Assembly (NCBI GenBank): GCA_036250195.1
Contig: JAVHZZ010000005.1
Location: 72,558,005-72,622,004, forward strand
DNA from: Mixophyes australis
Taxonomy: Eukaryota; Chordata; Amphibia; Anura; Limnodynastidae
DNA length: 64,000 nucleotides
Direction of reading: 5' to 3'
Position numbers and translations under genes: made by a program. This document shows positions 1,267 through 63,480 of this stretch, piece by piece. The notes under the pieces are model-generated. The model searched no databases. It saw only the letters and a program-made list of their open reading frames with translations, and was not told the DNA's origin. Each line of letters opens with the position of its first letter. The first letter of the stretch is position 1.

Positions 1267-1289
1267 GTAAAAATTAGGGATGTGCACCG

Positions 1290-1425
1290 GCGACTTTTGA
1301 GGTCTCGTGTTTTGTGTTTTGGATCCGGATTTTCGTTATTTTTGGGGTTCGGATTTGTCTCGCAAAACACTTGACGAAAGGTCTCGGTTCGGATTTAAGG
1401 TTTTGGATTCGGATTTTTTTTGAAA
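1290..1425. promoter_or_regulatory. left subterminal region with repeated GGAT(T/C)CGGAT motifs
   Basis: Directly inside the left terminus the words GGATCCGGATTTTCG, GTTCGGATTT and TTGGATTCGGATTTT recur. The same words occur at the other end of this element and at both ends of the element at 33482-38337. In hAT elements, short repeats next to the ends are bound by the transposase's BED finger; assigning that role here is inference. Confidence 0.45.
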
Positions 1426-1589
1426 AAAACATAAAAAGTTTAAAAATCAAGTTTTTGGGCTTATTTTCACTCCTAGGCTATTATTAACCTCAATAACATT
1501 CAATAACAAGCATTTCCACTAATTTACAGTGTATTCTGAACACCTCACAATATAGTTATTAGTCCAAAACGTTGCAACAAGGTATCTTT

Positions 1590-2500
1590 CTGGACTGCGT
1601 AGAGGAGTGGGTCACCACAATATCTATTAAAAACCCTGAACTTTTATGAATCGCACCAATAAATGTACCTGGACTGCGTAGAGGAGTGGGTCACCACAAT
1701 ATCTATTAAAAACCCTGAACTTTTATGATTCGCACCAATAAATGTACCTGGACTGCGTAGAGGAGTGGGTCACCACAATATATCTTAAAAACCCTGAACT
1801 TTTATGAATCGCACCAATAAATGTACCTGGACTGCCTAGAGGAGTGGGTCACCACAATATATATTAAAAACCCTGAACTTTTATGAATCGCACCAATAAA
1901 TGTACCTGGACTGCGTAGAGGAGTGGGTCACCACAATATCTATTAAAAACCCTGAACTTTTATGATTCGCACCAATAAATGTACCTGGACTGCGTAGAGG
2001 AGTGGGTCACCACAATATATCTTAAAAACCCTGAACTTTTATGAATCGCACCAATAAATGTACCTGGACTGCGTAGAGGAGTGGGTCACCACAATATCTA
2101 TTAAAAACCCTGAACTTTTATGAATCGCACCAATAAATGTACCTGGACTGCGTATAGGAGTGGGTCACCACAATATCTATTAAAAACCCTGAACTTTTAT
2201 GAATCGCACCAATAAATGTACCTGGACTGCGTAGAGGAGTGGGTCACCACAATATCTATTAAAAACCCTGAACTTTTATGATTCGCACCAATAAATGTAC
2301 CTGGACTGCGTAGAGGAGTGGGTCACCACAATATATCTTAAAAACCCTGAACTTTTATGAATCGCACCAATAAATGTACCTGGACTGCGTAGAGGAGTGG
2401 GTCACCACAATATATTAAAAACCCTGAACTTTTATGAATCGAACCAATAAATGTACCTGGACTGCGTAGAGGAGTGGGCACTGGGCACCACAATAAAATA
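1590..2500. repeat. 79-bp minisatellite inside hAT element 1
   Basis: About 11 head-to-tail copies of a 79-bp unit start with CTGGACTGCGTAGAGG at 1590, 1669, 1748 and so on to 2457, followed by a partial copy. Copies differ by only a few substitutions, and one carries a 2-bp deletion near 2410, so the array expanded recently. Alternating variants (ATCTATTAAA versus ATATCTTAAA; ATGAATC versus ATGATTC) suggest block duplication of two or three units at a time. Two more divergent units follow at 2691-2860. Confidence 0.93.
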
Positions 2501-2514
2501 TATAAAAAACCTTC

Positions 2515-3180
2515 AACAGGTCTGCATTACACTACACATACGGCTGCTCCTCCATCCTCTCCATCATATACATGTTGGAGTTTTAGCGTGTGACAACCTC
2601 TTGTTTTTGATAATGTCAGTGCATTTTGAATATTTTTCAATTTGCCCCACACCACTGAATGTACTTTATCTATGATACGCATCTATCTATCTTGACTGCG
2701 TAGTGTGGTGGCCCCGGTACACAATTTTGTACCGAGGCCACAATATAATTAAAAAACCCTCCACGTGTCAGAATTCCACCAAACAAGTATCTGGACTGCA
2801 TAGTGGGGTGGCCCCGGTACCCAATTTGATACCGGGGCCACAATACCTCCTCCAAACATGGTACAGACAATTCGTCATTGAGAGACCCCAGACAGACAGG
2901 GTCGAAGTGTTATTGTTTGACTTTGTAAACCCAAAAAAATGTCCCTGTTGCACATAGTCGTGCAATGGACAGTTACTTTTTTATTGAAAGACTCAAGCTT
3001 TCAAGTGTAGTGTTTATAAAATATAAACAACAATACAGTAGTTTTAGAGCACGTCAATACTTCTTGTTTTAAATTATGACACAGCATTTTACTTTTGGTT
3101 TAATTTCTTGTATTTTTTTAAATTTGGTTTTACTTTTTGAACATGGCAAACGACTGTTGATTGGTCATATAATGCAAAAA
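2515..3180 (-). pseudogene. decayed partial copy of the element's own transposase gene
   Basis: Several words match the intact transposase gene of the same element in the same order and strand. The stretch at about 2543-2620 (GCTCCTCCATCCTCT... CACAACCTCTTGTTT) matches 4419-4480. The stretch at about 2797-2850 (TACCGGGG-CACAATACCTCC) matches 5068-5118. The stretch at about 3143-3170 (CATGGCAAACGACTGTTG) matches 5239-5256. Minus-strand translation of 2670-2870 contains LEEVLWPRYQI, matching LMEVLCPRYQI of the transposase. The copy is broken by indels and cannot make protein. This is read from the sequence by eye and needs a self-alignment. Confidence 0.65.
2691..2860. repeat. two diverged minisatellite units containing a GGCCCCGGTACC palindrome
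   Basis: Two units start TTGACTGCGTAGTGTGG and CTGGACTGCATAGTGGGG. They resemble the 79-bp unit upstream but also contain an inverted repeat: GGCCCCGGTAC then GTACCGAGGCC, and GGCCCCGGTAC then ATACCGGGGCC. These longer units look like the ancestral form, from which the 79-bp unit arose by loss of the hairpin. Confidence 0.6.
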
Positions 3181-3256
3181 AAAAAGGTCCAAGATGGAAT
3201 TGTCCTTGAGCCCTCACACCCACCCTTATGTTGTTGAAATAGGACATGCACACTTT

Positions 3257-3320
3257 AACAAACCAATCATTTCAGCGACAGGGCCTACCAAACAACTTTG
3301 GCTGAAATGATTGGTTTGTT
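3257..3320. terminator. 20-bp perfect stem-loop just downstream of the transposase gene
   Basis: AACAAACCAATCATTTCAGC at 3257-3276 is followed, after a 24-base spacer, by its exact reverse complement at 3301-3320. It lies 56 bases past the transposase stop codon on the minus strand, so it would fall in the 3' UTR of the transcript. It may affect 3' end formation or stability, or it may be the remains of a nested foldback insertion. The stem is certain; the function is not. Confidence 0.5.
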
Positions 3321-3375
3321 TGGGCCCCCACACCAAAAAAGCTATTCATCTCTCCCTGTACAGACTAAACAGGCT

Positions 3376-6300
3376 CTACTGAGGCAAGATGTCGTCCTCA
3401 TCCTCAACCTCTGATTCCTCTCTCCCTACAGTGTGTACTTCCTCCTCATCACACATTATCAATTCGTCCCCGCTGGACTCCACAACCACAGGTCCCTCTG
3501 TACTATCTGGAGGGCAGTGCTGTACTTCATTGAGGAATTGATTATTCATTTTTATAAACATCATTTTTTCAACGTTATGAGGAAGCAACCTCCTTCGCCG
3601 CTCACTGACCAGGTTCCCCGCTGCACTAAAAACTCTTTCCGAGTACACACTGGAGGGGGGACAACTCAGGTAAAATAGAGCCAGTTTGTACAGGGGCTTC
3701 CAAACTGCCTTTTTTTCCTGCCAGTAACAATATGGACTGTCTGACATGTCTACTTGGATGGTGTCAGCAAAGTAATCATCCACAATTTTTTCTATTGTGA
3801 CAGCATCCAATGCAGCGACAGTAGACATGTCTGCAATGGTTGGCAGGTCCTTCAGTCCGGACCAGATGTTATCAGCATCCCCGCCAGTGCCTCTTTTGGG
3901 AAAACTGAGCTTTTTCCTCGCAGCCATAGATGTGGAAGAAAATGAGGGTGGAGCTGTTGGCATGTCACGGTCCTCTTCAGAGGACAATTTCCTGACCAGC
4001 AGGTCTTTGCACCGCTGTAGACTTGTGTCCACCGAAAACAGAGACACAACATACGCTTTAAACCGAGGATCGAGCACGGTGGCCAGAATGTATTCCTCTG
4101 ACTTTAAAAGAGTGACCACCCTCGGATCCTGGCAAAGCGTACGAAGGGCTACATCCACAAGAGCTACATGCTTGGTGTAATCGCAATGGCTTACCAGCTC
4201 CTCCCTCACTTTCTCCAGCTGCTTCTGCAACAGCCTGATCAGGGGAATGACCTGACTCAAGCTGGCAGTGTCGGAACTGACTTCTCGTGTGGCAAGTTCA
4301 AATGGCTGCAGAACCTTGCACAACACGGAAATCAGTCTCCACTGCGCTTGACTGAGGCGCATCCCCACTCCTTTGCCTATGTCGTAGGTGGCTGTGTAGG
4401 CCTGAATGGCCTTTTGCTGCTCCTCCATCCTCTGCAGCATATAGAGGGTGGAGTTCCAGCGCGTCACAACCTCTTGTTTGAGGTGATGGCAGGGCAGGTT
4501 CATGCTTTTTTGATGTGCCTCTAGTCTGCGGTAGGCACTGGCTGAATGCCGAAAGTGTCCAGCAATTTTGCGCGCCACCGCAAGCATCTCCTGCACACCC
4601 CTGTCACTCTTGAGGTAATGCTGCACCACCAAATTAATGGTGTGGGCAAAACATGGGACGTGCTGGAAATTGCCCATATTTAATGCCCGCACAATGTTAC
4701 TGGCATTGTCTGACACCACAAATCCCCATGAGAGTCTAAGTGGGGTAAGCCACTGGGAGATAATTTCCCTCATTTTCTCTAATATGTTGTCAGCGTTGTG
4801 CCTCTTATTAAAGCCTGTAATGCACAATGTTGCCTGCCTTTGCACGAGCCGCCATTTTGTAGTTGCTGCTACTGATGCAGCTGTTGCTGTTGCTGCGGAA
4901 GGGGATGCATCTACCCAGTGGGCTGTCACAGTCATATAGTCCTTCGTTTGCCCAGAACCACTTGTCCACATGTCCGTGGTTAAGTGGACAGTGGGTACAA
5001 CCGCATTTTTTAGAGCACTGAGGACACTTGATCGTACTTCTCTGTACATTTTTGGTATCGCCTGCCTAGTGAAGTGGAATCTCGACGGGATTTGGTACCG
5101 GGGACACAATACCTCCATCAACCCTCTAAATCCCACTCCACTGATGGCGGACACCGGGCGCACGTCTAACACCAACATTGCAGTTACAGCCGCAGTTATA
5201 CGCTTTGCAATAGGGTGACTACTATCGTATTTTGTGGTCATGGCAAACGACTGTTGGACGGTCAATTGTTTTGTGAAAGACTTAGCGGTCTTACGACTTC
5301 CCCTCTGGGAAGATGACCGACTAACAGCAGCAACAGCAGCAGTGGCAGTAGTAGGCGTACCGCTGCAGGATTCCTCGGATGAATCCCGTATTGAGGAGGA
5401 CTCAGTCTGGCTGCTGACTTGGGCTGCAGGACTGAATCTGATGGAGATTGTGGAGGAAGTTGACGAGGAGGGTGTTGCTGGTGTGTATCCAACTGGACCA
5501 CGGGATTTAGGTGTCCCTGTACCGATGAGGGTCCTAGCCCCAGTTCCTGAACTAACCACTGAACTATGAAGGTTATTCAGGTGACGTATAAGGGAGGATG
5601 TTCCTAGGTGGGCAAGATCCTTACCCCTGCTTATTTGAGCTTTACATAAGCTACATATGGCCATACATTGGTTGTCTGGATTTGGATAAAAATAACTCCA
5701 GACCGAAGAGGTGCATTTTTTGGTCTTCTGACCAGGCATGACGATGGGCTTTTTCATCCCATGGACATCAGCTGTTTCCCCCCCTGGTGCCTCATTTACA
5801 ATAACCACATCACCATCCTCATCATCAAGTTCCTCCACAGCGCCAGCTACATCATCAATAGCCTCCTCCCGAGCCACCTCTTCCCGTACAGTGATGGGAA
5901 GGTCAGGCTTGACAACCACCAACACCCTTGGACTCGCCTTGTGGATTTGTGATAATTTCTCTTTAGAAGGCAGAGTTGTTTGCTGTTTTGTTGCTGACAG
6001 CATAACTCTCTTCAATTTTTTGTAGGGGGGGGGGGGGAGGAGGAGGGCTAAGATCCGTGGGTGAAGCTGAACCACTAGTCATGAACACGGGCCAGGGCCT
6101 AAGCCGTTCCTTGCCACTCCGTGTCGTAAATGGCATATTGGCAACTTTACGTTTCTCCTCAGATGATTTTAAGTTTCTCTTTTTGCTACTTTTTCTTAAC
6201 TTGGGCTTTTTGGATTTTACATGCCCGGTACTACGAGATTGGGCATCGGGCTTGGAAGACGACGTTGATGGCATTTCATCGTCTATGTCATGACTAGTGG

Positions 6301-6385
6301 CAGCAGCTTCAGCATTAGGAGGAAGTGGGTCTTGATCTTTCCCTACTTTATCCTCCAAATTTTTGGTCTCCATTATATGTAGCAC
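3376..6385 (-). CDS. hAT transposase with BED zinc finger, one frameshift
   Basis: This gene would encode the DDE-type enzyme that cuts and reinserts the hAT element. Two overlapping frames cover it: 6385-5963 (N-terminus) and 6075-3376 (899 codons). They are joined across 13 consecutive Gs (6025-6037); the total of 3,010 bases is one more than a multiple of three, so a single extra G explains the break. The likely start is the ATG at 6373 (METK), which aligns with MDSK of element 2. Numbering in the 899-residue frame: BED finger about 120-171 with C141, C144, H165 and H170; Ser/Thr-rich linker; RNase-H-like core with D368 (TTDMWTS) and D456 (VSDNASN); CxxH at C475/H478; E813 in SVYSERVFS; C-terminal dimerisation block to about 845; acidic tail. 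The core residues look intact. A sequencing or assembly slip in the G run would make this a functional gene. Confidence 0.93.
6025..6037. other. 13-G run causing the transposase frameshift
   Basis: Thirteen Gs on the plus strand encode a proline run in the transposase N-terminal region. The N-terminal frame and the main frame meet here and differ by one base. Long homopolymers are prone both to replication slippage and to read error. Confidence 0.85.
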
Positions 6386-7085
6386 AAGATACTGCAGAAT
6401 GTGTGAACTTGGTAATATTGCAGTACCAATGGACTTATACTGCTGTATTGGTTTTGCAAATTTGGTTATAATAATTATTATATTATTTTTTTTTTTTTTA
6501 TTTTTTTTTTTTTTTTACTTTTTTTTTATTTTTTAAAAACTTGGGAATAATGGGGAAATAACTATGCCCTTAGAAGCACAGAGCAAAGGACACAGCACCA
6601 CTGGACTGAACAGGACACGGCACAGGACCCAGCAGCACTACGGAACTCAGCAGGACAGAGCACAGGACACAGCACCACTGGACTGATACTGCAGAATGTG
6701 TAAACTTTGTAATATTGCAGTACCACTGGACTTTTACTGCTGAATGTGTGAACTTGGTAATATTGCAGTACCAATGGGCTTATACTGCAGGATTGGTTGT
6801 GCAAATTTTGTGGTAATTAAAAAAAATTAAATTAGTTTTTTTTATTTTTTTAAACACAGGGGAATATTGGGGAAATAACTATGCCCTTAGAAGCACAGAG
6901 CACAGGACACAGCACCACTGGACTGAACAGGACACAGCACTGGACCCAGCAGCACCACTGACCTCAGAAGGACAGAGCACAGCACCACTGGACTGATACT
7001 GCAGAACACAGCACAGCACAGCACAGCACAGAACTAAACAGCACAGCACAGAACTAAACAGCACAGCACGAGATCTACCAGGACA
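6380..7085. repeat. about 310-bp tandem duplication in the 5' region of hAT element 1
   Basis: The block ATACTGCAGAATGTGT... through TTTTTTA-rich DNA to TATGCCCTTAGAAGCACAGA occurs once from about 6389 and again from about 6688. The start of a third copy near 6998 is replaced by GCACA-rich short repeats (7010-7070). The region lies upstream of the transposase start on the minus strand, so it should contain the promoter. A poly-T/A tract at 6480-6535 sits inside the first copy. Confidence 0.8.
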
Positions 7086-7149
7086 GAGGACCACCTAACA
7101 CACCCTCCCTCTACCCTGATCAATGCCCGAGTGAAGATGGCGGCGACTA

Positions 7150-7322
7150 GCGGGGAATTTATAGGATCCGAGTATCGCGAGATCCGACAACGGGATTATG
7201 AGTCAGAGCCTCAGTTTCATATTTGAATTTGGCGCCAATACCCGGATCTGTCTCGGATCCGACTCGGATCGGCAATGTTCGGGTGGGCTCGGATTTCAGA
7301 TATCCGAGCCCGCTCATCTCTA
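7150..7322. promoter_or_regulatory. right subterminal region with TATCGCGAGATCCGA and repeated GGATCCGA motifs
   Basis: Within 170 bp of the right end are GAGTATCGCGAGATCCGAC, GGATCTG, TCGGATCCGACTCGGATCGG, GCTCGGATTTC and TATCCGAGCC. The corresponding end of element 2 (38160-38337) has AAGTATCGCGAGAACCGAG and similar TCCGAG/CTCGG words. Conservation between elements whose other non-coding DNA has diverged suggests transposase-binding sites (inference). Confidence 0.5.
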
Positions 7323-7330
7323 GTAAAAAT

Positions 7331-8187
7331 ATTACATTTGTTTTCCGTTACTGTGTCTCACTTCTGCACAATGCAAATCCCATCTTACAAGTCTAGTAAA
7401 AATGCATGACAGATTTTGAATGTTATTGCTTGTTTTACATTAGCGCCATCAGCACTAATTACATATTGATTGCTTGGTGACCAAATTAGCCCACTTTTCA
7501 GTTTAGCTACTGTGTAATCCATACTACAGTCACAATATAAACAGAAAGTACCCTCTAGTATTCAGTGCTAAATTGTGAGGTCCATTTCAGAGGCTAATGT
7601 CTACATTTTGTCAGCAGCCACACATGGTTACTGGCCAAGTGATGGACAAAAGCAGCAGTAATCAAGGGGAACCAGTGACAAGTATGCTTGATAAGATGAC
7701 CAAGACAAACTCTTTGAAAATTTATGTACCTTATGTTTTTCGTGACGTATGGATGTTTTTTTATTTATGACTGTTCTGGCTACAATTCTACTGCATCTGA
7801 TAAATAACATTTGTACATTACATAGACATGCATTATTATATTTACTATGTTAAATATTTGTTGTCATGTTTGTGTTTTTTTAAGAAAGTTATTGTGTATT
7901 ATATATGTGAATCTTTCTGCCCTGCCTGTAATTTCCCAACAATGTTTGCCGATCATGTTAAAAATAAATTAAATAAAGCATAGTTTGTGTATACAACCAA
8001 AGGGTTAGAGTGCCAGTAAAATGTCATTTATTAAGCATATTCACAGCTTATTTCAGATTTGTAGTCAATGACAAAATCTATTTTACTGTCACAATTGTAT
8101 TTAATTGCAAATGTTTCAAAAGTACAGTATTATCAGCCTGGTTTAGTGTCCGACCTTATTATATTATTTCTTGATGGTGCATACTGG
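7331..8187. other. AT-rich DNA with no recognised feature
   Basis: No coding or repeat structure was recognised. The short frame on the minus strand at 7628-7810 has no supporting signals. Confidence 0.5.
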
Positions 8188-8347
8188 TAGGTTAATTGGC
8201 TGCTAACAAATTGACCCTAGTCTGTCTGTGTGTGTATTAGGGAATTTAGACTGTAAGCCCCAATGGGGCAGGGACTGATGTCAGTAAGTTCTCTGTACAG
8301 CGCTGCAGAATAAGTGGCACTATATAAATAAATGATGATGATGATCT
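8188..8347 (-). repeat. dispersed repeat (5' half), minus strand
   Basis: Reverse complement of the first half of the repeat at 63141-63480. It contains ATTTATATAG(T)GCCACT, GCGCTGTACAGAGAACT, CAGTCCCTGCCCCATTGG and CAGCCAATTAACCTA, and ends in a short ATC microsatellite. The family is common in frog sequence; whether it is a SINE or a LINE 3' end is not settled here. Confidence 0.75.
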
Positions 8348-8454
8348 GTGCTCGGAGGTATTGATGGAACAAACAGACTTCATATTGTACTTTTACAAAT
8401 TCTCCCTGCCTGTTGTTTTTCAAACTCAAAGTCTTGGTTCTTGTTATAGTCCAG

Positions 8455-8592
8455 AAATCATCATAATCATCACCATTTATTTATATAGCGCCACTGATTC
8501 CGCAGTGCTGTACAGAGAACTCATTCACATCAGTCCCTGCCCCATTGGGGCTTTCAGTCTAAATTCCCTAACATACACACACAGACAGACAG
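8455..8592 (+). repeat. dispersed repeat (5' half), plus strand
   Basis: Contains ATAGCGCCACTGATTCCG, CAGTGCTGTACAGAGAACTC and CATCAGTCCCTGCCCCATTG, then ends in CACACACAGACAGACAG. It is the inverted partner of 8188-8347, about 107 bp away, so the two could pair as a hairpin. Confidence 0.75.
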
Positions 8593-8869
8593 AAATGTTG
8601 CATTCCTCAAATTATGCTTTAAGAAGAACCCCACACAACATTAAATTAGGTGCAGTTCAGCATGTTAAGGCGAGAGTTGTACTTATGGTATGGTGTGGTG
8701 TTCCACCAAGGGTCCTGAAACCTTTAATGATCCAAAACCAGTGTTGTCACTTCACCTGTGAAATTCCCATTCATGCAAATGGGAGGGTATAAGTCTTTTA
8801 GATCTAATTTATTCCCCATTCTGGTGTTTGGTCTGAACAACAACGGATCATCTTGACTATGTCAGTATG

Positions 8870-33081: not shown

Positions 33082-33481
33082 AAGATCTACAAAATCTGGT
33101 AGGCAGCGAGAATACCCGAACGTGACCATACCTGTATGTTAATGTTATTTTTTTTCTTTTTTGATTTGAGTAGTTCTTATACATATTAAATATTGTTTTT
33201 AGTGGTAATTTACAGTACGACTCTTTTTTTTCTATATTTATTCCATGCATGTAAGAGTTTTTGGATTCAGCATGTGGAATTTAGCAAATGGACGATTAAG
33301 CTTTCTGAATGACCCAATACATTTGCAATGGAGCAAGCATATTTACCTAAGGGGGTTTCTCCTGAAGATTTGCTACCACAAGTGGTAGTAGATGTGGTGT
33401 TGATGATCTTGAAAGTAAGCGCACTCACAAAGGGGTGAGTTGTCACCTCATTTTGTGTCGCTGGCTGGAATTAGTTTTTAT

Positions 33482-33640
33482 TAGAGATGGTCACTGACCC
33501 CCGTGTTTTGGTTTTGGATTCGGTTTTGGATCTGGATTACCGTCGTGTTTTGGTTTTGGTTTTGGTTTTGCAAAACCTCCATTGCGTGTTTTGGTGTTGG
33601 TTTTGGTTTTGTTTGGTTTTGTTTTGCTATTTTTTGGGAA
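33482..33640. promoter_or_regulatory. left subterminal GTTTTGG-rich region
   Basis: More than ten GTTTTGG/GGTTTTGG words with TTGGATTCGG and TTGGATCTGGATT lie next to the left end. Element 1 has the comparable TTTTGGATCCGGATTTTC and TTGGATTCGGATTTT at 1316-1420. A transposase-binding role is inferred. Confidence 0.45.
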
Positions 33641-33869
33641 AATCCATGTTTTTGGGCCTAAATTAACCCAATTTAGTGCTCCAACTGTTTTAGAGACAAG
33701 TAATCTAATTGTTGAGGTAATAAATCATCCAAAAAAACAGTTTAATTCTTCGTTGGTAGGCCTATTCTACACACAAAACAGATTGTCTTCCTCTCCATCT
33801 ATGCATATTGGCAATGCAGCCATCGTCTTTGAATGTATATTACACCCTACACTTATAGTTAAATATGTA

Positions 33870-34530
33870 AAGAAATGGAAAAAGCCAGTTTGGTTTCTGT
33901 CTCTCAAGGCCCCCCTCCACTTGTATAAAATACCAAAAAATTCAGCCATTATAGACTGTACAATATTAATTGACATGGAGAAAGCCAGTTTGGTTTCTGT
34001 CTCTCAAGGCCCCCCTCCACTTGTATAAAATACCAAAAAATTCAGCCATTATAGACTGTACAATATTAATTGACATGGAGAAAGCCAGTTTGGTTTCTGT
34101 CTCTCAAGGCCCCCCTCCACTTGTATAAAATACCAAAAAATTCAGCCATTATAGACTGTACAATATTAATTGACATGGAGAAAGCCAGTTTGGTTTCTGT
34201 CTCTCAAGGCCCCCCTCCACTTGTATAAAATACCAAAAAATTCAGCCATTATAGACTGTACAATATTAATTGACATGGAGAAAGACAGTTTGGGGTCACT
34301 CTGTCTCTCTAGGCCCCCCTCCACTTGTATAAAATACCAAAAAATTCAGCCATTATAGACTGTACAATATTAATTGACATGGAAAAAGCCAGTTTGGTTT
34401 CTGTCTCTCTAGGCCCCCCTCCACTTGTATAAAATACCCAAAAATTCAGCCATTATAGACTGTACAATATTATGAAAAATGGACAAAGCCAGTTTAGGGT
34501 CACTCTGTCTATGACACCCTACCCTTAAGG
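33870..34530. repeat. 100-bp tandem array, 3' side of hAT element 2
   Basis: AAAGCCAGTTTGGTTTCTGT begins units at 33881, 33981, 34081 and 34181, then variant units at 34281, 34385 and 34485. The first four are identical or nearly so. Later units carry GGGGTCACTCTG, which makes one unit 104 bp. Open frames through the array are artefacts. Confidence 0.95.
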
Positions 34531-34623
34531 ATAAATTGCCCTAACAGCAGCCTTTCAAGATGGTATGTGATATGGAAATGCCACAAGTTTCTTTCCTCTT
34601 TGGGGGTAGATTGCTCCCTACAC

Positions 34624-37600
34624 TTACATAGAAAGTTTTAAAAAGATGTTATCGTCATCATCTTCAGCTTCATCCTCACCCTCATCAGTGTGTATGTCAT
34701 CATCACAGACTATCAATTCATCGCCGCTTGAATCCGCCATTAGAGAACAGTCAGTGCTTGGATGTCTTGGATGGTGAAGGCCTTCCTCGTGGAAGATGTA
34801 GTTCATTTTTATAAACATCATTTTCTCCACATTTTTGGGAAGTAACCTTCTACGGCGATCACTGACTAAGTTCCCTGCTGTGCTGAACACTCGTTCAGAG
34901 TACACACTGGAGGGTGGGCAGCTTAGGTATTGCAAAGCAAGTTTGTACATGGGTTTCCAAATGGCCTGCTTTTCTTCCCAGTAAGGAAAGGGACTGTCTG
35001 ACATTTCCATATCAACTACCTCTTGAAAGTAATCCTCCACCATCCTTTGCATGTTTATACTCATATTGGATGGAGTTATGAGCAAAGTGACACATTTTTT
35101 TGAAAAATCCTTCAAACCAGCCCAGATGTTAAATTGTTCTGGTCTGCCCCCTGTGTCTTCCCTGCTTCTTTTTTGGAAATTTAATTTTTTACGAGCAACA
35201 GCTTGAGAAAGTGAAGGAGGACACGTCGTCAAGCCGAGGCCCAGTTCAGCGGCCAACTTGCTGAGCAATAGCTCCTTGCAAAAGTTCACATCTCGCTCAT
35301 TTACAAGTAAAGACTCAATGTAGGTTTTAAACCTTGGATCAAGCACAGTGGCCAAAACGTACTGATCCGAGTTCAAGATCTTAATAACTCGAGGATCATT
35401 GTGAAGCGAATTAAGTACTTGATCGACAAGGCCAACATACTTTGCTGAATTGCTTGCTTTCAGCTCCTCCTTCATTTTCTCAAGCTGCTTTTCCAATAGT
35501 CTAATTAAAGGAATGACTTGGCTCAAACTAGCAGAGTCAGCACTGACCTCACATGTCACAACTTCAAATGGTTTCAGCACCTTGCACAGCACTGAAAGGA
35601 TTCCCCACTGTGCAAGAGTGAAATACATCCCCCCTCCTTTCCCAATGTCATGACTTGTGCAATATGCTTGGATGGCTTTGCGCTGTTCCTCCATCCTCTG
35701 AAGCATGTACAGGGTGGAATTCCACCGAGTTACCACCTCTTGCTTAAGTTGGTGGCAGGGCAAGTTAAACTGCTCTTGGAGCTGCTGTAATCTCCTACAT
35801 GCTGTGGCTGAATGCCTGAAATGGCCTGAAATTTTACGGGCCACCGAAAGCATCTCCTGCACCTCACGGTTATTTCGTAGGAAGCTCTGCACCACCAAGT
35901 TGATGGTGTGAGCAAAACAGGGAATATGTTAGAAATCACCCAGCTGTAATGCTCGCACTATATTGTTGGCGTTATCTGAAATGACATACCCTGGGGAGAG
36001 TCCGAGTGGTATAAGCCATGCATCAATCACATCTCTCAGTTTGCGTAACAAATTGTCAGCCGTATGCCTGTTAGTGAAGCCGGTGATACAAAGAGTGGCC
36101 TGCCTGTGACAAATGTTACGTAGTGGTGTACATGCTGCTGCTGTTCCTGCTGGTGAAGGTGAATGACCAACCCAGTGGGCTGTCACAGTCATATAGTCTT
36201 TGGTTTGGCCACTTCCACTTGTCCACATATCTGTGGTTAAGTGAACAGTGGGCAGAATGGCATTTTTCAGCGCAATCTCTACATTTTTACACACTTTTTG
36301 GTATAGTTGTGGAATAGCTTTACGGGAGAAATGGTGTCGCGATGGAATTCTGTAACGCGGACACAAAACCTCAATTAACTGTGAAAAACCAGCTGCGTTT
36401 ATTGTGGAGATTGGACGCAGATCTAACACTAACATTGCAGCCATGGCGTCTGTGATTCGCTTGGCGACTAGGTGACTGCTGTCATATTTGCTTCCCCTCG
36501 CAAATGATTGTTTCACAGTTAATTGCTGAAATGTAGGACTGCTCATTTTATTCACCTGCCTCTGGGATGACGATTCACCCCCAGCAGCAGCAACAGCAGC
36601 AGCAGGACTAACACTTTCTTCAGAGGAATCAATAATAGTGCCGGAGTCATCCAGCCTTAAGTGGGATGCCGGGCTAACTCCGAGCGCTACTGAGGATATT
36701 GATGAGGATGGTGTGGTGGGTGTATTTTGTAGCCGTCGGTATGTCGGTGAGCGGAGGGTCTTAGCTGATGAGGGAGTGCTTGTATTCTTTTGGGAAGAAC
36801 TTTCAGCTTTTCCCAACACTTTGCCATGAACTCTCGTTAAATGGCGTAACATAGACGAGGTTCCAAGATGGTTAAGGTCCCTCCCTCGACTGACTGTGGC
36901 TTCACATACACTACAAATGGCTATACAATTGTTGTCTGGATTTGGGTAGAAATAATTCCACACATAAGAAGTGGATTTTTTTGTTTTATGCCCAGGCATG
37001 ACAATGGCCTTTTTCTTGTCACGTGCCAGAACTGCTGCCACTGGTGCAGGACTTACACAAACAACCTCATCCTCATCAACATCCTCATTAGCGCCCTCGT
37101 CGCCTACACAAATCTCCCCCTCATCCTCTTCTAATTCCAAAGTGGCATCCTCAATTTGGGTATCACCGGCTACACTCGGGCTATTAAGGCACACATCAGC
37201 AGAATGCTCACGATTAGACATCCCACTGTTGGATGGACTCTCCACAGGGATTGTTGTCATTTGTGAATCAGAGCAAATATTCTCCTGTAATGCCTCACTG
37301 TTATCTTGCAGCTCAGCTTTGACGCGTAACAGTAGTTGTGCACCAATTGTAGGCTGGGTAACTTTTTGGGATCTGCCACTAATAGCCAAAGGTGAAGGCC
37401 TCATTCTCTCTTTGCCACTGCGTGTGTAGAATGGCATGCTTGCAATTTTTTTTTTATCGTCACTTAACTTTTGCTCAGTTACACTTCTTTTTCGCTTCAA
37501 TACAGTAAATTTTTTTTTGGTTTTTGTTTTTTGCACTAATTTGAAAACACTCTGTTGTTTGACATCGCCTTGGCCAGATGACGTACTGGGAACACTAACA

Positions 37601-37662
37601 TCAGGACTGGTGACCGAACCTGGTTGCTCATTTAGATCATATGTGGACTGCTTTGAATCCAT
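34624..37662 (-). CDS. hAT transposase with BED zinc finger, one nonsense codon
   Basis: This is the DDE enzyme of element 2. The frame runs 37662-34624 (1,013 codons) with a single internal TAA at 35931-35929. Both sides are in the same phase; the neighbouring residues are LGDF before and HIPCFAHTINL after, and the stop replaces the Q seen in element 1 (NFQHVPCF), most simply a CAA-to-TAA change. From the start: Lys-rich N-terminus; MPFYTRSGKERMRPSP (also in element 1); acidic stretch about 170-200; BED finger about 229-280 with C250, C253, H274 and H279; D478 in TTDMWTS; D563 in ISDNANN; CFAHT after the stop; SVYSERVFSTAGN with the third acidic residue; C-terminal acidic tail. The length is close to the roughly 1,000 residues inferred for element 1. 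Confidence 0.93.
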
Positions 37663-37671
37663 TCTGAGCGC

Positions 37672-37990
37672 AAACCACTGAGGAGTGCTAAAAATTATTT
37701 AGTAGATACTGCTGACAGATATGACTTTTGACAGCCAGAAATATTAATGCACAATTAGGGAGGACACCCCAAAAACACTGAGGAGTGCTAAAAATTATTT
37801 AGTAGATACTGCTGACAGATATGACTTTTGACAGCCAGAAATATTAATGCACAATTAGGGAGGACACCCCAAAAACACTGAGGAGTGCTACACATTATTT
37901 AGTAGATACTGCTGACAGATATGACTTTTGACAGCCAGAAATATTAATGCACAATTATGGGGGACACCCCAAAAGCGCTGGGGAGTGCCA
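37672..37990. repeat. 100-bp tandem array, 5' side of hAT element 2
   Basis: AGGAGTGCTAAAAATTATTT starts units at 37681 and 37781, with a CACATTATTT variant at 37881 and a degenerate fourth at 37981. It lies just upstream of the transposase start, so it should be part of the promoter region. The unit is unrelated in sequence to the 100-bp unit on the other side. Confidence 0.95.
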
Positions 37991-38159
37991 AATATGAAGA
38001 AAAAATAATAAACCTCTATCCTCCTCTCTGCACTAGCGATTTTGGTTAGAGCAATTGCAAGAACAATATTGTATTCTCTGTCCCTGCTCTAATTAGCCTA
38101 TGACTACACCCTGCTCTCTCCCTCTGTCAAATGGCGATGGATTGCTGTGGAGGCGTGTA

Positions 38160-38337
38160 TTTATAAAGTTGAAGTATCGCGAGAACCGAGTCCCGAGATC
38201 CGACGACGTCACAATGACGTTCGGCCTCGATTTGGATTCGGAATGGGCGGGAGAGTACCGAGCTGCTCAGCTCGGTACTCGGATACCCAAAGTTCGGGTG
38301 GGTTCGGTTCTCGGAGAACCGGACCCGCCCATCTCTA
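38160..38337. promoter_or_regulatory. right subterminal region with TATCGCGAGAACCGAG and a perfect hairpin
   Basis: Shares TATCGCGAGA(A/T)CCGA, TTTGGATTCGG and AAGTTCGGGTGGG with element 1. Includes GAGTACCGAGCT-GCTC-AGCTCGGTACTC at 38253-38280, a 12-bp perfect stem, and GGTTCTCGGAGAACC near 38308. Likely transposase recognition DNA (inference). Confidence 0.5.
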
Positions 38338-38345
38338 GTTTTTAT

Positions 38346-62790: not shown

Positions 62791-63140
62791 AAACAGTATA
62801 GTATTTAACAAACCATTAATCAGAATTTAAAAAAAAGCAGGGTCCATTTTTTAGAAAGAAATATAGTTTATCTATGTGAATTGATTGAAACTACCCATAA
62901 CGAGTCCACACCAATCACTTGGAAAAATTCTTGCATTTTGGATAAAGACAGACTGAAAATATGACCACCCATGTGTAAAATCCTAACAGTAAGGTTTCCT
63001 TTCAATAATAATTAATACCCCTACAAAAGGTAAAATATTTCCGCACTTATCTGTACAGATAATGTTTTCAACTCTAATGAGGAACTCCTTTTCTGCCTGG
63101 ATGAGAAAGTTATGATGTTCCACAAATGTAATGCTGTCCA
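62791..63140. other. no recognised feature
   Basis: Nothing supported. Confidence 0.45.
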
Positions 63141-63480
63141 ATAATCATCAGCATCATCAGTTATTTATATAGCGCCACTAATTCCGCAGCGCTGTACAGA
63201 GAACTCGCTCACATCAGTCCCTGCCCCATTGGGTGGTACGGTCTAAATTCTCTATCATACACACACACAGAGACCGAAAGAGACTAAGGTCAATTTAATA
63301 GCAGCCAATTAACCTACTAGTATGTTTTTGAAGTGTGGGAGGAAACTGGAGTGCCTGGGGGAAACCCACGCAAACACAGGGAGATCATACAAACTCCTCA
63401 CAGATAAGGCCATGGTCGGGAATCATACTCATGACCCCAGTGCTGTGAGTCAGAAGTGCTAACCACTAAGCCACCATGCT
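63141..63480 (+). repeat. full-length dispersed repeat (SINE- or LINE-end-like)
   Basis: Begins with a short ATC microsatellite and TTATTTATATAGCGCCACTA, then GCAGCGCTGTACAGAGAACT, CATCAGTCCCTGCCCCATTG, CAGCCAATTAACCTACTAG, GTGGGAGGAAACTGGAGTGC, CCCACGCAAACACAGGGAGA, and ends GTGCTAACCACTAAGCCACC. The second half is a sequence type common in fish and amphibian repeats. Copies of the first half are at 8188-8347 and 8455-8592. Confidence 0.8.

What the first reader, a model, noticed from the sequence alone, without database searches (positions are those of the whole stretch)
3376..6385. Nearly intact hAT transposase broken only by one base in a 13-G run
The two frames overlap at 6025-6037 and the total length exceeds a multiple of three by one. 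All visible catalytic and zinc-finger residues are present. If the true genome has 12 (or 15) Gs, the gene is open for about 1,000 codons, giving a potentially active hAT of unusually large protein size, flanked by a perfect target duplication.
Basis: partly seen in the sequence, partly recalled or inferred. Interest (0 to 1): 0.75.

Follow-up and report, generated by a model that had tools for sequence, protein, structure and literature searches.

The report
Nearly intact ZBED6-like frog transposon
This is an almost complete "jumping gene" of a well-known superfamily in what looks like a frog genome; its apparent defect lies in a run of Gs whose length is easily misread or changed and touches only a probably floppy front part of the protein, and a second, related, nearly intact element sits 26 kb away.

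Summary
A 6,048-bp hAT transposon (1275-7322; ends TAGGGATGTGC/TAGAGATGAGC; perfect 8-bp duplication GTAAAAAT) carries a minus-strand transposase in two frames meeting in a 13-G run at 6025-6037. BED finger, D-D-E, CxxH and RW residues are present; the predicted fold matches Hermes.

Three corrections to the interpretation. (1) The window holds a second element of a sister family (33482-38337, duplication GTTTTTAT) whose N-terminal region and BED/first catalytic half share one frame: the best evidence that element 1's two frames were one protein. Element 2 has its own single lesion, an in-frame TAA. (2) "Broken" is too strong: an in-frame ATG 21 bases past the run opens 875 codons with every recognised domain; only a predicted-disordered extension is cut off. 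(3) About 1,000 codons is common here (7 of 12 listed amphibian relatives are 900 aa or longer).

Whether 13 Gs is germline, an assembly error or copy-specific cannot be told: the window's genome did not complete and no reads are held. Verdict: ordinary but well-preserved new member of the hAT superfamily. Side result: its 79-bp minisatellite probably descends from a relic of transposase coding sequence.

The parts
1267..1274 (.). Target site duplication GTAAAAAT, left
1275..1422 (+). Left end with terminal repeat TAGGGATGTGC; aligns over its whole length with the left end of element 2 (65%, E 8.6e-8)
1590..2478 (.). 79-bp minisatellite, 11.3 copies, inside the 3' non-coding part
2543..3167 (-). 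Three collinear relic pieces of transposase coding sequence (2543-2646, 2787-2855, 3131-3167)
3376..6075 (-). Main transposase frame, 899 codons: zf-BED at residues 123-171, catalytic residues D368, D456, E813, dimerisation region 766-842
6001..6003 (-). In-frame ATG of the main frame, 21 bases past the run; opens 875 codons (start of translation inferred)
6025..6037 (.). 13-G run (C run in the sense strand) where the two frames meet
5963..6385 (-). N-terminal frame, 140 codons from GTG; first ATG at 6373-6371
7165..7322 (-). Right end with terminal repeat TAGAGATGAGC; aligns over its whole length with the right end of element 2 (70%, E 1.6e-15); TCGGAT-rich
7323..7330 (.). Target site duplication GTAAAAAT, right
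33482..38337 (-). Element 2, sister hAT family, flanked by GTTTTTAT at 33474-33481 and 38338-38345
34624..37662 (-). Element 2 transposase frame from ATG 37662, 1,012 codon positions before the final stop, interrupted by one TAA at 35929-35931

Best explanation
Element 1 is a probably recently inserted, near-intact cut-and-paste DNA transposon of the hAT superfamily (ZBED6-like, one BED finger) in a frog-like genome. Its transposase, made from the minus strand, would bind the terminal repeats and perhaps subterminal TCGGAT-type repeats through the catalytic core and BED finger, cut both ends with the D-D-E site and join them into a target staggered by 8 bp (mechanism inferred by homology to Hermes; anatomy shown). 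The protein was ancestrally one frame of about 1,000 codons; the frames now meet in a length-unstable 13-G run, through a recent slippage change in this copy or a length error in the assembly (not decided). Even as written, an ATG just past the run can start an 875-codon transposase with every recognised domain (initiation inferred), so the copy need not be dead.
For: Boundaries, terminal repeats, duplication. Pfam zf-BED 1e-10 and Dimer_Tnp_hAT 1.4e-14; Hermes by sequence; all 12 PDB fold matches with E<=0.001 are Hermes chains. Catalytic and zinc-ligand residues present. Element 2 has its N-terminal region in one frame with BED finger and first catalytic half, and that region matches the 5963-6385 piece (39% over 82 aa, E 4e-11). 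Between the elements only the two ends (about 150 bp each) and the coding region align; 5% of the other 3' and 0% of the 5' non-coding part does. Main-frame dN/dS 0.19 over 872 codons. G/C runs of 6 or more in the window: 29 of length 6, one 7, one 8, none 9-12, six of 13-18. AlphaFold leaves residues 1-121 below pLDDT 50 and orders the BED finger and most of the catalytic region.
Against: No other copy, read, transcript or empty site was seen, so mobility, present activity and the true G count are untested; recency rests on the perfect duplication and few lesions. dS 1.67 is near saturation. The N-terminal 120 codons are weakly constrained (pN/pS 0.61, interval 0.47-0.78), and no database relative of residues 1-230 of element 2 was found among 1,855 candidates. 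TCGGAT-type repeats are 10 in the 2 x 300 bp ends of element 1 but only 2 in those of element 2, so a shared binding site is not shown. Activity without the N-terminal extension is inferred.
Confidence: 0.85

Rival explanations
1. Sub-case A: the G count is an assembly or sequencing error and the genomic copy is fully open.
For: Length errors in long G/C runs are common (general knowledge). The offset lies in the element's only G/C run of 9 or more, and no other frame-breaking change separates the two frames.
Against: No reads are held. Six runs of 13-18 G/C occur in this window, and such runs also vary truly between copies and alleles.
Confidence: 0.35
2. Sub-case B: a real slippage mutation after insertion; the long form is lost in this copy, and element 2 (nonsense) is likewise lost, both families decaying.
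For: Both elements, as written, carry one lesion each. With assumed rates (kappa 2, out-of-frame indels 9% of substitutions) one lesion fits about 0.26% neutral divergence, upper limit about 1.5%.
Against: The internal ATG leaves all recognised domains. The estimate rests on assumed rates.
Confidence: 0.4
3. Sub-case C: the C run of the mRNA is a slippery site at which polymerase or ribosome slippage yields some long protein and keeps transposase low. Precedent: the domesticated hAT transposase gene KAT1 has a -1 frameshift bypassed by programmed translational frameshifting that limits expression (PMC4763223, passage).
For: The frames overlap across the run: the downstream frame is open about 14 codons before it, the upstream frame about 20 codons beyond it.
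Against: Element 2 has no such run at the corresponding place and is in one frame there, so this is not a conserved device. Nothing here measured slippage.
Confidence: 0.06
4. A domesticated host ZBED gene rather than a transposon.
For: Several relatives are annotated as ZBED6-like or ZBED4-like genes.
Against: Terminal repeats, perfect duplication, ends conserved with element 2 and a frame offset. Misannotation of hATs as genes in vertebrates is documented (PMC10641963, passages).
Confidence: 0.02

Closest known systems
Element 2 in the same window
   Same: Same anatomy, both ends conserved, 54% and 60% protein identity over two aligned stretches
   Different: Different lesion (TAA), no G run, different minisatellites (100-bp units), few TCGGAT-type repeats in the ends (2 against 10)
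Pseudophryne corroboree gene model P0020, named L-amino-acid oxidase-like
   Same: Its residues 1-194 are 69% identical to main-frame residues 581-768 (136 of 196 columns), the highest identity
   Different: Only a transposase fragment in front of an oxidase; no ends examined
ZBED6-like proteins: Latimeria P0012, Bombina P0013, and Xenopus tropicalis P0018 (named BED-type)
   Same: BED finger, hAT catalytic and dimerisation parts, 942-1,543 aa, 35-41% identity over 93-95% of the searched region
   Different: Low identity; the N-terminal extension is not recognisable in them beyond a short TRSG motif in Bombina, which may be chance; P0012 has three BED-like matches
Hermes (Musca domestica)
   Same: Fold (TM 0.72 by target length); D456, E813 and RW align; BED finger; 8-bp nTnnnnAn target pattern (PMC10368747 passages)
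   Different: 612 aa; about 19% identity; subterminal motif AAGT there, TCGGAT-type here
hAT-6_XT (PMC11008031 passages)
   Same: Vertebrate hAT with 8-bp duplication and DDE/RW residues

Membership tests
hAT superfamily | 8-bp target site duplication | tested here: met
   GTAAAAAT directly outside both ends
hAT superfamily | Terminal inverted repeats (15 bp by the definition in PMC11008031) | tested here: met
   TAGGGATGTGC / TAGAGATGAGC, 9 of the first 11 bases; no match in the next four, so 9 of 15
hAT superfamily | Transposase with D-D-E site, RW and C-terminal dimerisation region | tested here: met
   that D368 is the first catalytic Asp rests on column conservation and recalled motifs
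hAT superfamily | BED zinc finger, Cx2CxnHx3-5(H/C) | tested here: met
   C141, C144, H165, H170; Pfam zf-BED 1e-10; formula as quoted in PMC4890040
hAT superfamily | Subterminal repeats in the ends | tested here: inconclusive
   ATCCGA/TCGGAT: 10 of the window's 18 lie in the two 300-bp ends of element 1 (3 left, 7 right), 2 of 18 in the right end of element 2; binding not tested
hAT superfamily | Cut-and-paste movement | not testable with these tools
   No empty site, further same-family copy or assay
Ac-type hAT | nTnnnnAn target | tested here: met
   GTAAAAAT and GTTTTTAT both fit; pattern stated for Hermes in PMC10368747; its use to separate Ac from Buster groups is recalled
Ac-type hAT | Tree position with Ac rather than Buster | tested here: inconclusive
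   Elements 1 and 2 pair at 100/100 in a 33-row tree, their place is unresolved, and no Ac or Buster reference was included
Domesticated ZBED gene | No terminal repeats or target duplication | tested here: not met
   Both present; synteny not tested

The most novel reading that the evidence does not exclude
The poly-C run of the mRNA works as a tunable gate: run-length changes and slippage switch the family between a long transposase with the N-terminal extension and a shorter 875-codon form started at the next ATG, so that a homopolymer is a self-limiting expression switch of a vertebrate hAT.
Probability: 0.05. Interest if true: 0.65.

Novelty: new member of a known kind. Interest (0 to 1): 0.3.

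Why it matters
Active hATs are said to be rarely found in vertebrates (abstract of PMC4890040), so two near-intact families 26 kb apart are good candidates for activity tests and for dating recent hAT mobility in frogs. It is also a caution: one offset in a long G run should not by itself be called a broken gene when a start codon just beyond it keeps every domain. The relic-to-minisatellite series in the 3' part suggests how a transposon's own coding sequence can become tandem-repeat DNA.

Tried and rejected
Other copies in the genome: the genome search 'own' was asked eight times and never answered. Viral contigs: 2 stretches matched a pattern, none encodes a relative. Protein search with the whole frame: 11 hits, best 33%; restricted to residues 345-870: 169, of which 120 listed, only the 7,993 candidates sharing most words being scored. 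Relatives of residues 1-230 of element 2: none of 1,855 candidates. N-terminal piece of element 1 against 130 fetched proteins: one hit, E 0.98. Rfam: 0 matches at gathering score. Element 1 minisatellite against the 3' non-coding part of element 2: no match. Array unit directly against coding sequence: 7 bases only. Tree: 31 of 130 fetched proteins plus the two elements; the Pseudophryne row is long-branched because its oxidase part was included, so its place means nothing; the bootstrap had not settled. Activity of maize Ac transposase without its first about 100 residues is recalled; two paper searches did not bring it up. Rejected: an intron across the run (element 2 is open through that region); a domesticated gene.

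Full report
What is there. The finding's coordinates cover the coding part of a larger element. On the plus strand an end beginning TAGGGATGTGC starts at 1275 and its inverted partner, TAGAGATGAGC, ends at 7322; the eight bases outside, GTAAAAAT, are identical on both sides. At the window's composition eight matching bases have a chance of 2.2e-5. The element is 6,048 bp. The minus strand carries a main frame of 899 codons, 3376-6075, and a 140-codon frame, 5963-6385, which meet in a run of exactly 13 G at 6025-6037.

What the protein is. The main frame has zf-BED (E 1e-10) and Dimer_Tnp_hAT (E 1.4e-14) in Pfam and matches Hermes by sequence. Its AlphaFold model (mean pLDDT 72.3, pTM 0.66, 32-row alignment) has 12 PDB matches with E at most 0.001, all Hermes chains, the best 3.7e-19 with TM 0.72 by target length. 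In an alignment of 34 rows (31 of the 130 fetched proteins, element 1, and element 2 as two pieces, which give gaps) element 1 has the common residue at each tested column: D368 (D in 32 of 34), D456 (31), C475 (31), H478 (32), R539 (31), W540 (32), E813 (31); BED ligands C141 and C144 (24 of 34 each, the other 10 gaps), H165 (27), H170 (26). D456, E813 and RW align with Hermes directly; that D368 is the first catalytic Asp rests on column conservation and recalled motifs.

A second element settles the frame question. At 33482-38337 lies another hAT of 4,856 bp with ends TAGAGATGGTC and TAGAGATGGGC and a perfect GTTTTTAT duplication. Its transposase pieces are 54% and 60% identical to element 1 over 413 and 419 columns and have zf-BED and Dimer_Tnp_hAT. 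From ATG 37662 its frame is open through N-terminal region, BED finger and first catalytic half to one TAA at 35929-35931, then open in the same frame to 34624. Its N-terminal region matches the small frame of element 1 (39% over 82 aa, E 4e-11; as DNA, 6086-6218 with 37387-37525, 65%, E 6e-7). So in a sister family the two parts are one protein and element 1's split is derived. Element 2 has no G run there.

Selection and anatomy. Between the elements the main frame has dN 0.32 and dS 1.67 (near saturation), ratio 0.19 over 872 codons; the N-terminal 120 codons are less constrained (pN/pS 0.61, interval 0.47-0.78), as are main-frame residues 22-110 (pN 0.48, pS 0.55), whereas residues 110-180 with the BED finger have pN 0.22, pS 0.69. 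Element-to-element alignment covers all of the left 148 bp, all of the right 158 bp, 88% of the coding region, 5% of the rest of the 3' non-coding part (a coding relic) and none of 6374-7164; 0 of 200 shuffles of either end reached E<1e-5. Ends and gene are what is kept. ATCCGA/TCGGAT occurs 10 times in the two 300-bp ends of element 1 out of 18 in the window, but only twice in those of element 2. Hermes uses BED fingers on subterminal repeats (PMC10368747, passages); that the motif is the BED site here is inference, and its scarcity in element 2 counts against a shared site.

How broken is it? The main frame has an ATG at 6003-6001, 21 bases past the run, with G at -3 and C at +4; it opens 875 codons with all recognised domains. 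The model leaves residues 1-121 below pLDDT 50 (also 179-267, 706-732, 750-757, 851-897) and becomes ordered at the BED finger. The long form would start at 6373 in a better context (A at -3, G at +4). So the copy may still make a complete-looking enzyme. In Tgf2, loss of the zinc finger itself lowered but did not abolish integration and made it imprecise (PMC4890040, passages); here the finger is retained. G/C runs of six or more in the window are bimodal: 29 of six, one of seven, one of eight, none of nine to twelve, six of 13-18; this run belongs to the long class. With assumed rates (kappa 2; out-of-frame indels 9% of substitutions) one lesion in about 3,000 coding bases corresponds to 0.26% neutral divergence, upper limit 1.5%.

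Size and relatives. Of 120 relatives listed (169 found), 11 are 900 aa or longer; of the 12 listed that are named as amphibian, 7 are. The remaining five range from 538 to 701 aa and may be partial. The highest identity is to a transposase fragment at the front of a Pseudophryne corroboree oxidase gene model, 69% over 196 columns. In a 33-row tree elements 1 and 2 pair at 100/100, their place otherwise unresolved. ZBED genes are hAT-derived (PMC3606216, passages). That the host is a frog is inference from this relative and from repeats that look anuran by recall.

A side result. The 3' non-coding part holds three pieces of transposase coding sequence in the same order and orientation as in the gene: 2543-2646 (82.5 bits), 2787-2855 (44.0) and 3131-3167 (35.4), against a maximum of 28.3 bits in 200 dinucleotide shuffles; a further piece, 2696-2745 (31.1 bits), repeats the second one. 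Translated, 2544-2615 matches residues 530-553 at 71%. The 79-bp unit (11.3 copies) matches 2738-2811 (E 2.6e-11) and 2787-2855 matches coding 5055-5121 (E 1.7e-9), while unit and coding no longer match directly (E-values of small pairwise searches). The stretches shared by both links are short (2787-2811, and 2738-2745 through the piece 2696-2745), so the series coding piece, decayed relic, amplified unit is probable, not proven.

What cannot be said. On the papers: I saw passages of PMC11008031, PMC10368747, PMC3606216, PMC12822217, PMC12314482, PMC3878927, PMC4890040, PMC10641963 and PMC4763223; others only in search listings.

Noticed in passing
33482-38337: Second near-intact hAT of a sister family with perfect GTTTTTAT duplication, one in-frame TAA, and 100-bp tandem repeats at 33875-34495 and 37672-37992.
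   Followed up: yes
1590-3167: A 79-bp minisatellite inside element 1 that probably descends, through degenerate copies around 2690-2860, from a relic of transposase coding sequence.
   Followed up: partly
6390-7006: The 5' non-coding part of element 1 holds a partial duplication (6520-6696 with 6836-7006, 89%; 6390-6499 with 6735-6850, 86%) and CACAG repeats.
   Followed up: no
3257-3320: A 25-bp inverted repeat, 92% complementary with 14 bases between the arms, just downstream of the transposase stop.
   Followed up: no
whole window: G/C homopolymers are bimodal: 31 runs of 6-8 and six of 13-18, none between.
   Followed up: partly
34552-34604: Short inverted duplicate of element 2 coding sequence (34977-35029, 80%, E 5e-7) in its own 3' non-coding part.
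   Followed up: no
P0020 (Pseudophryne corroboree protein): A gene model named L-amino-acid oxidase-like begins with about 190 residues of a hAT transposase, 69% identical to element 1; misannotation or exonisation.
   Followed up: partly
8180-8595 and 63140-63324: An interspersed repeat present in both orientations (84-91% identity); it looks anuran from recall.
   Followed up: no
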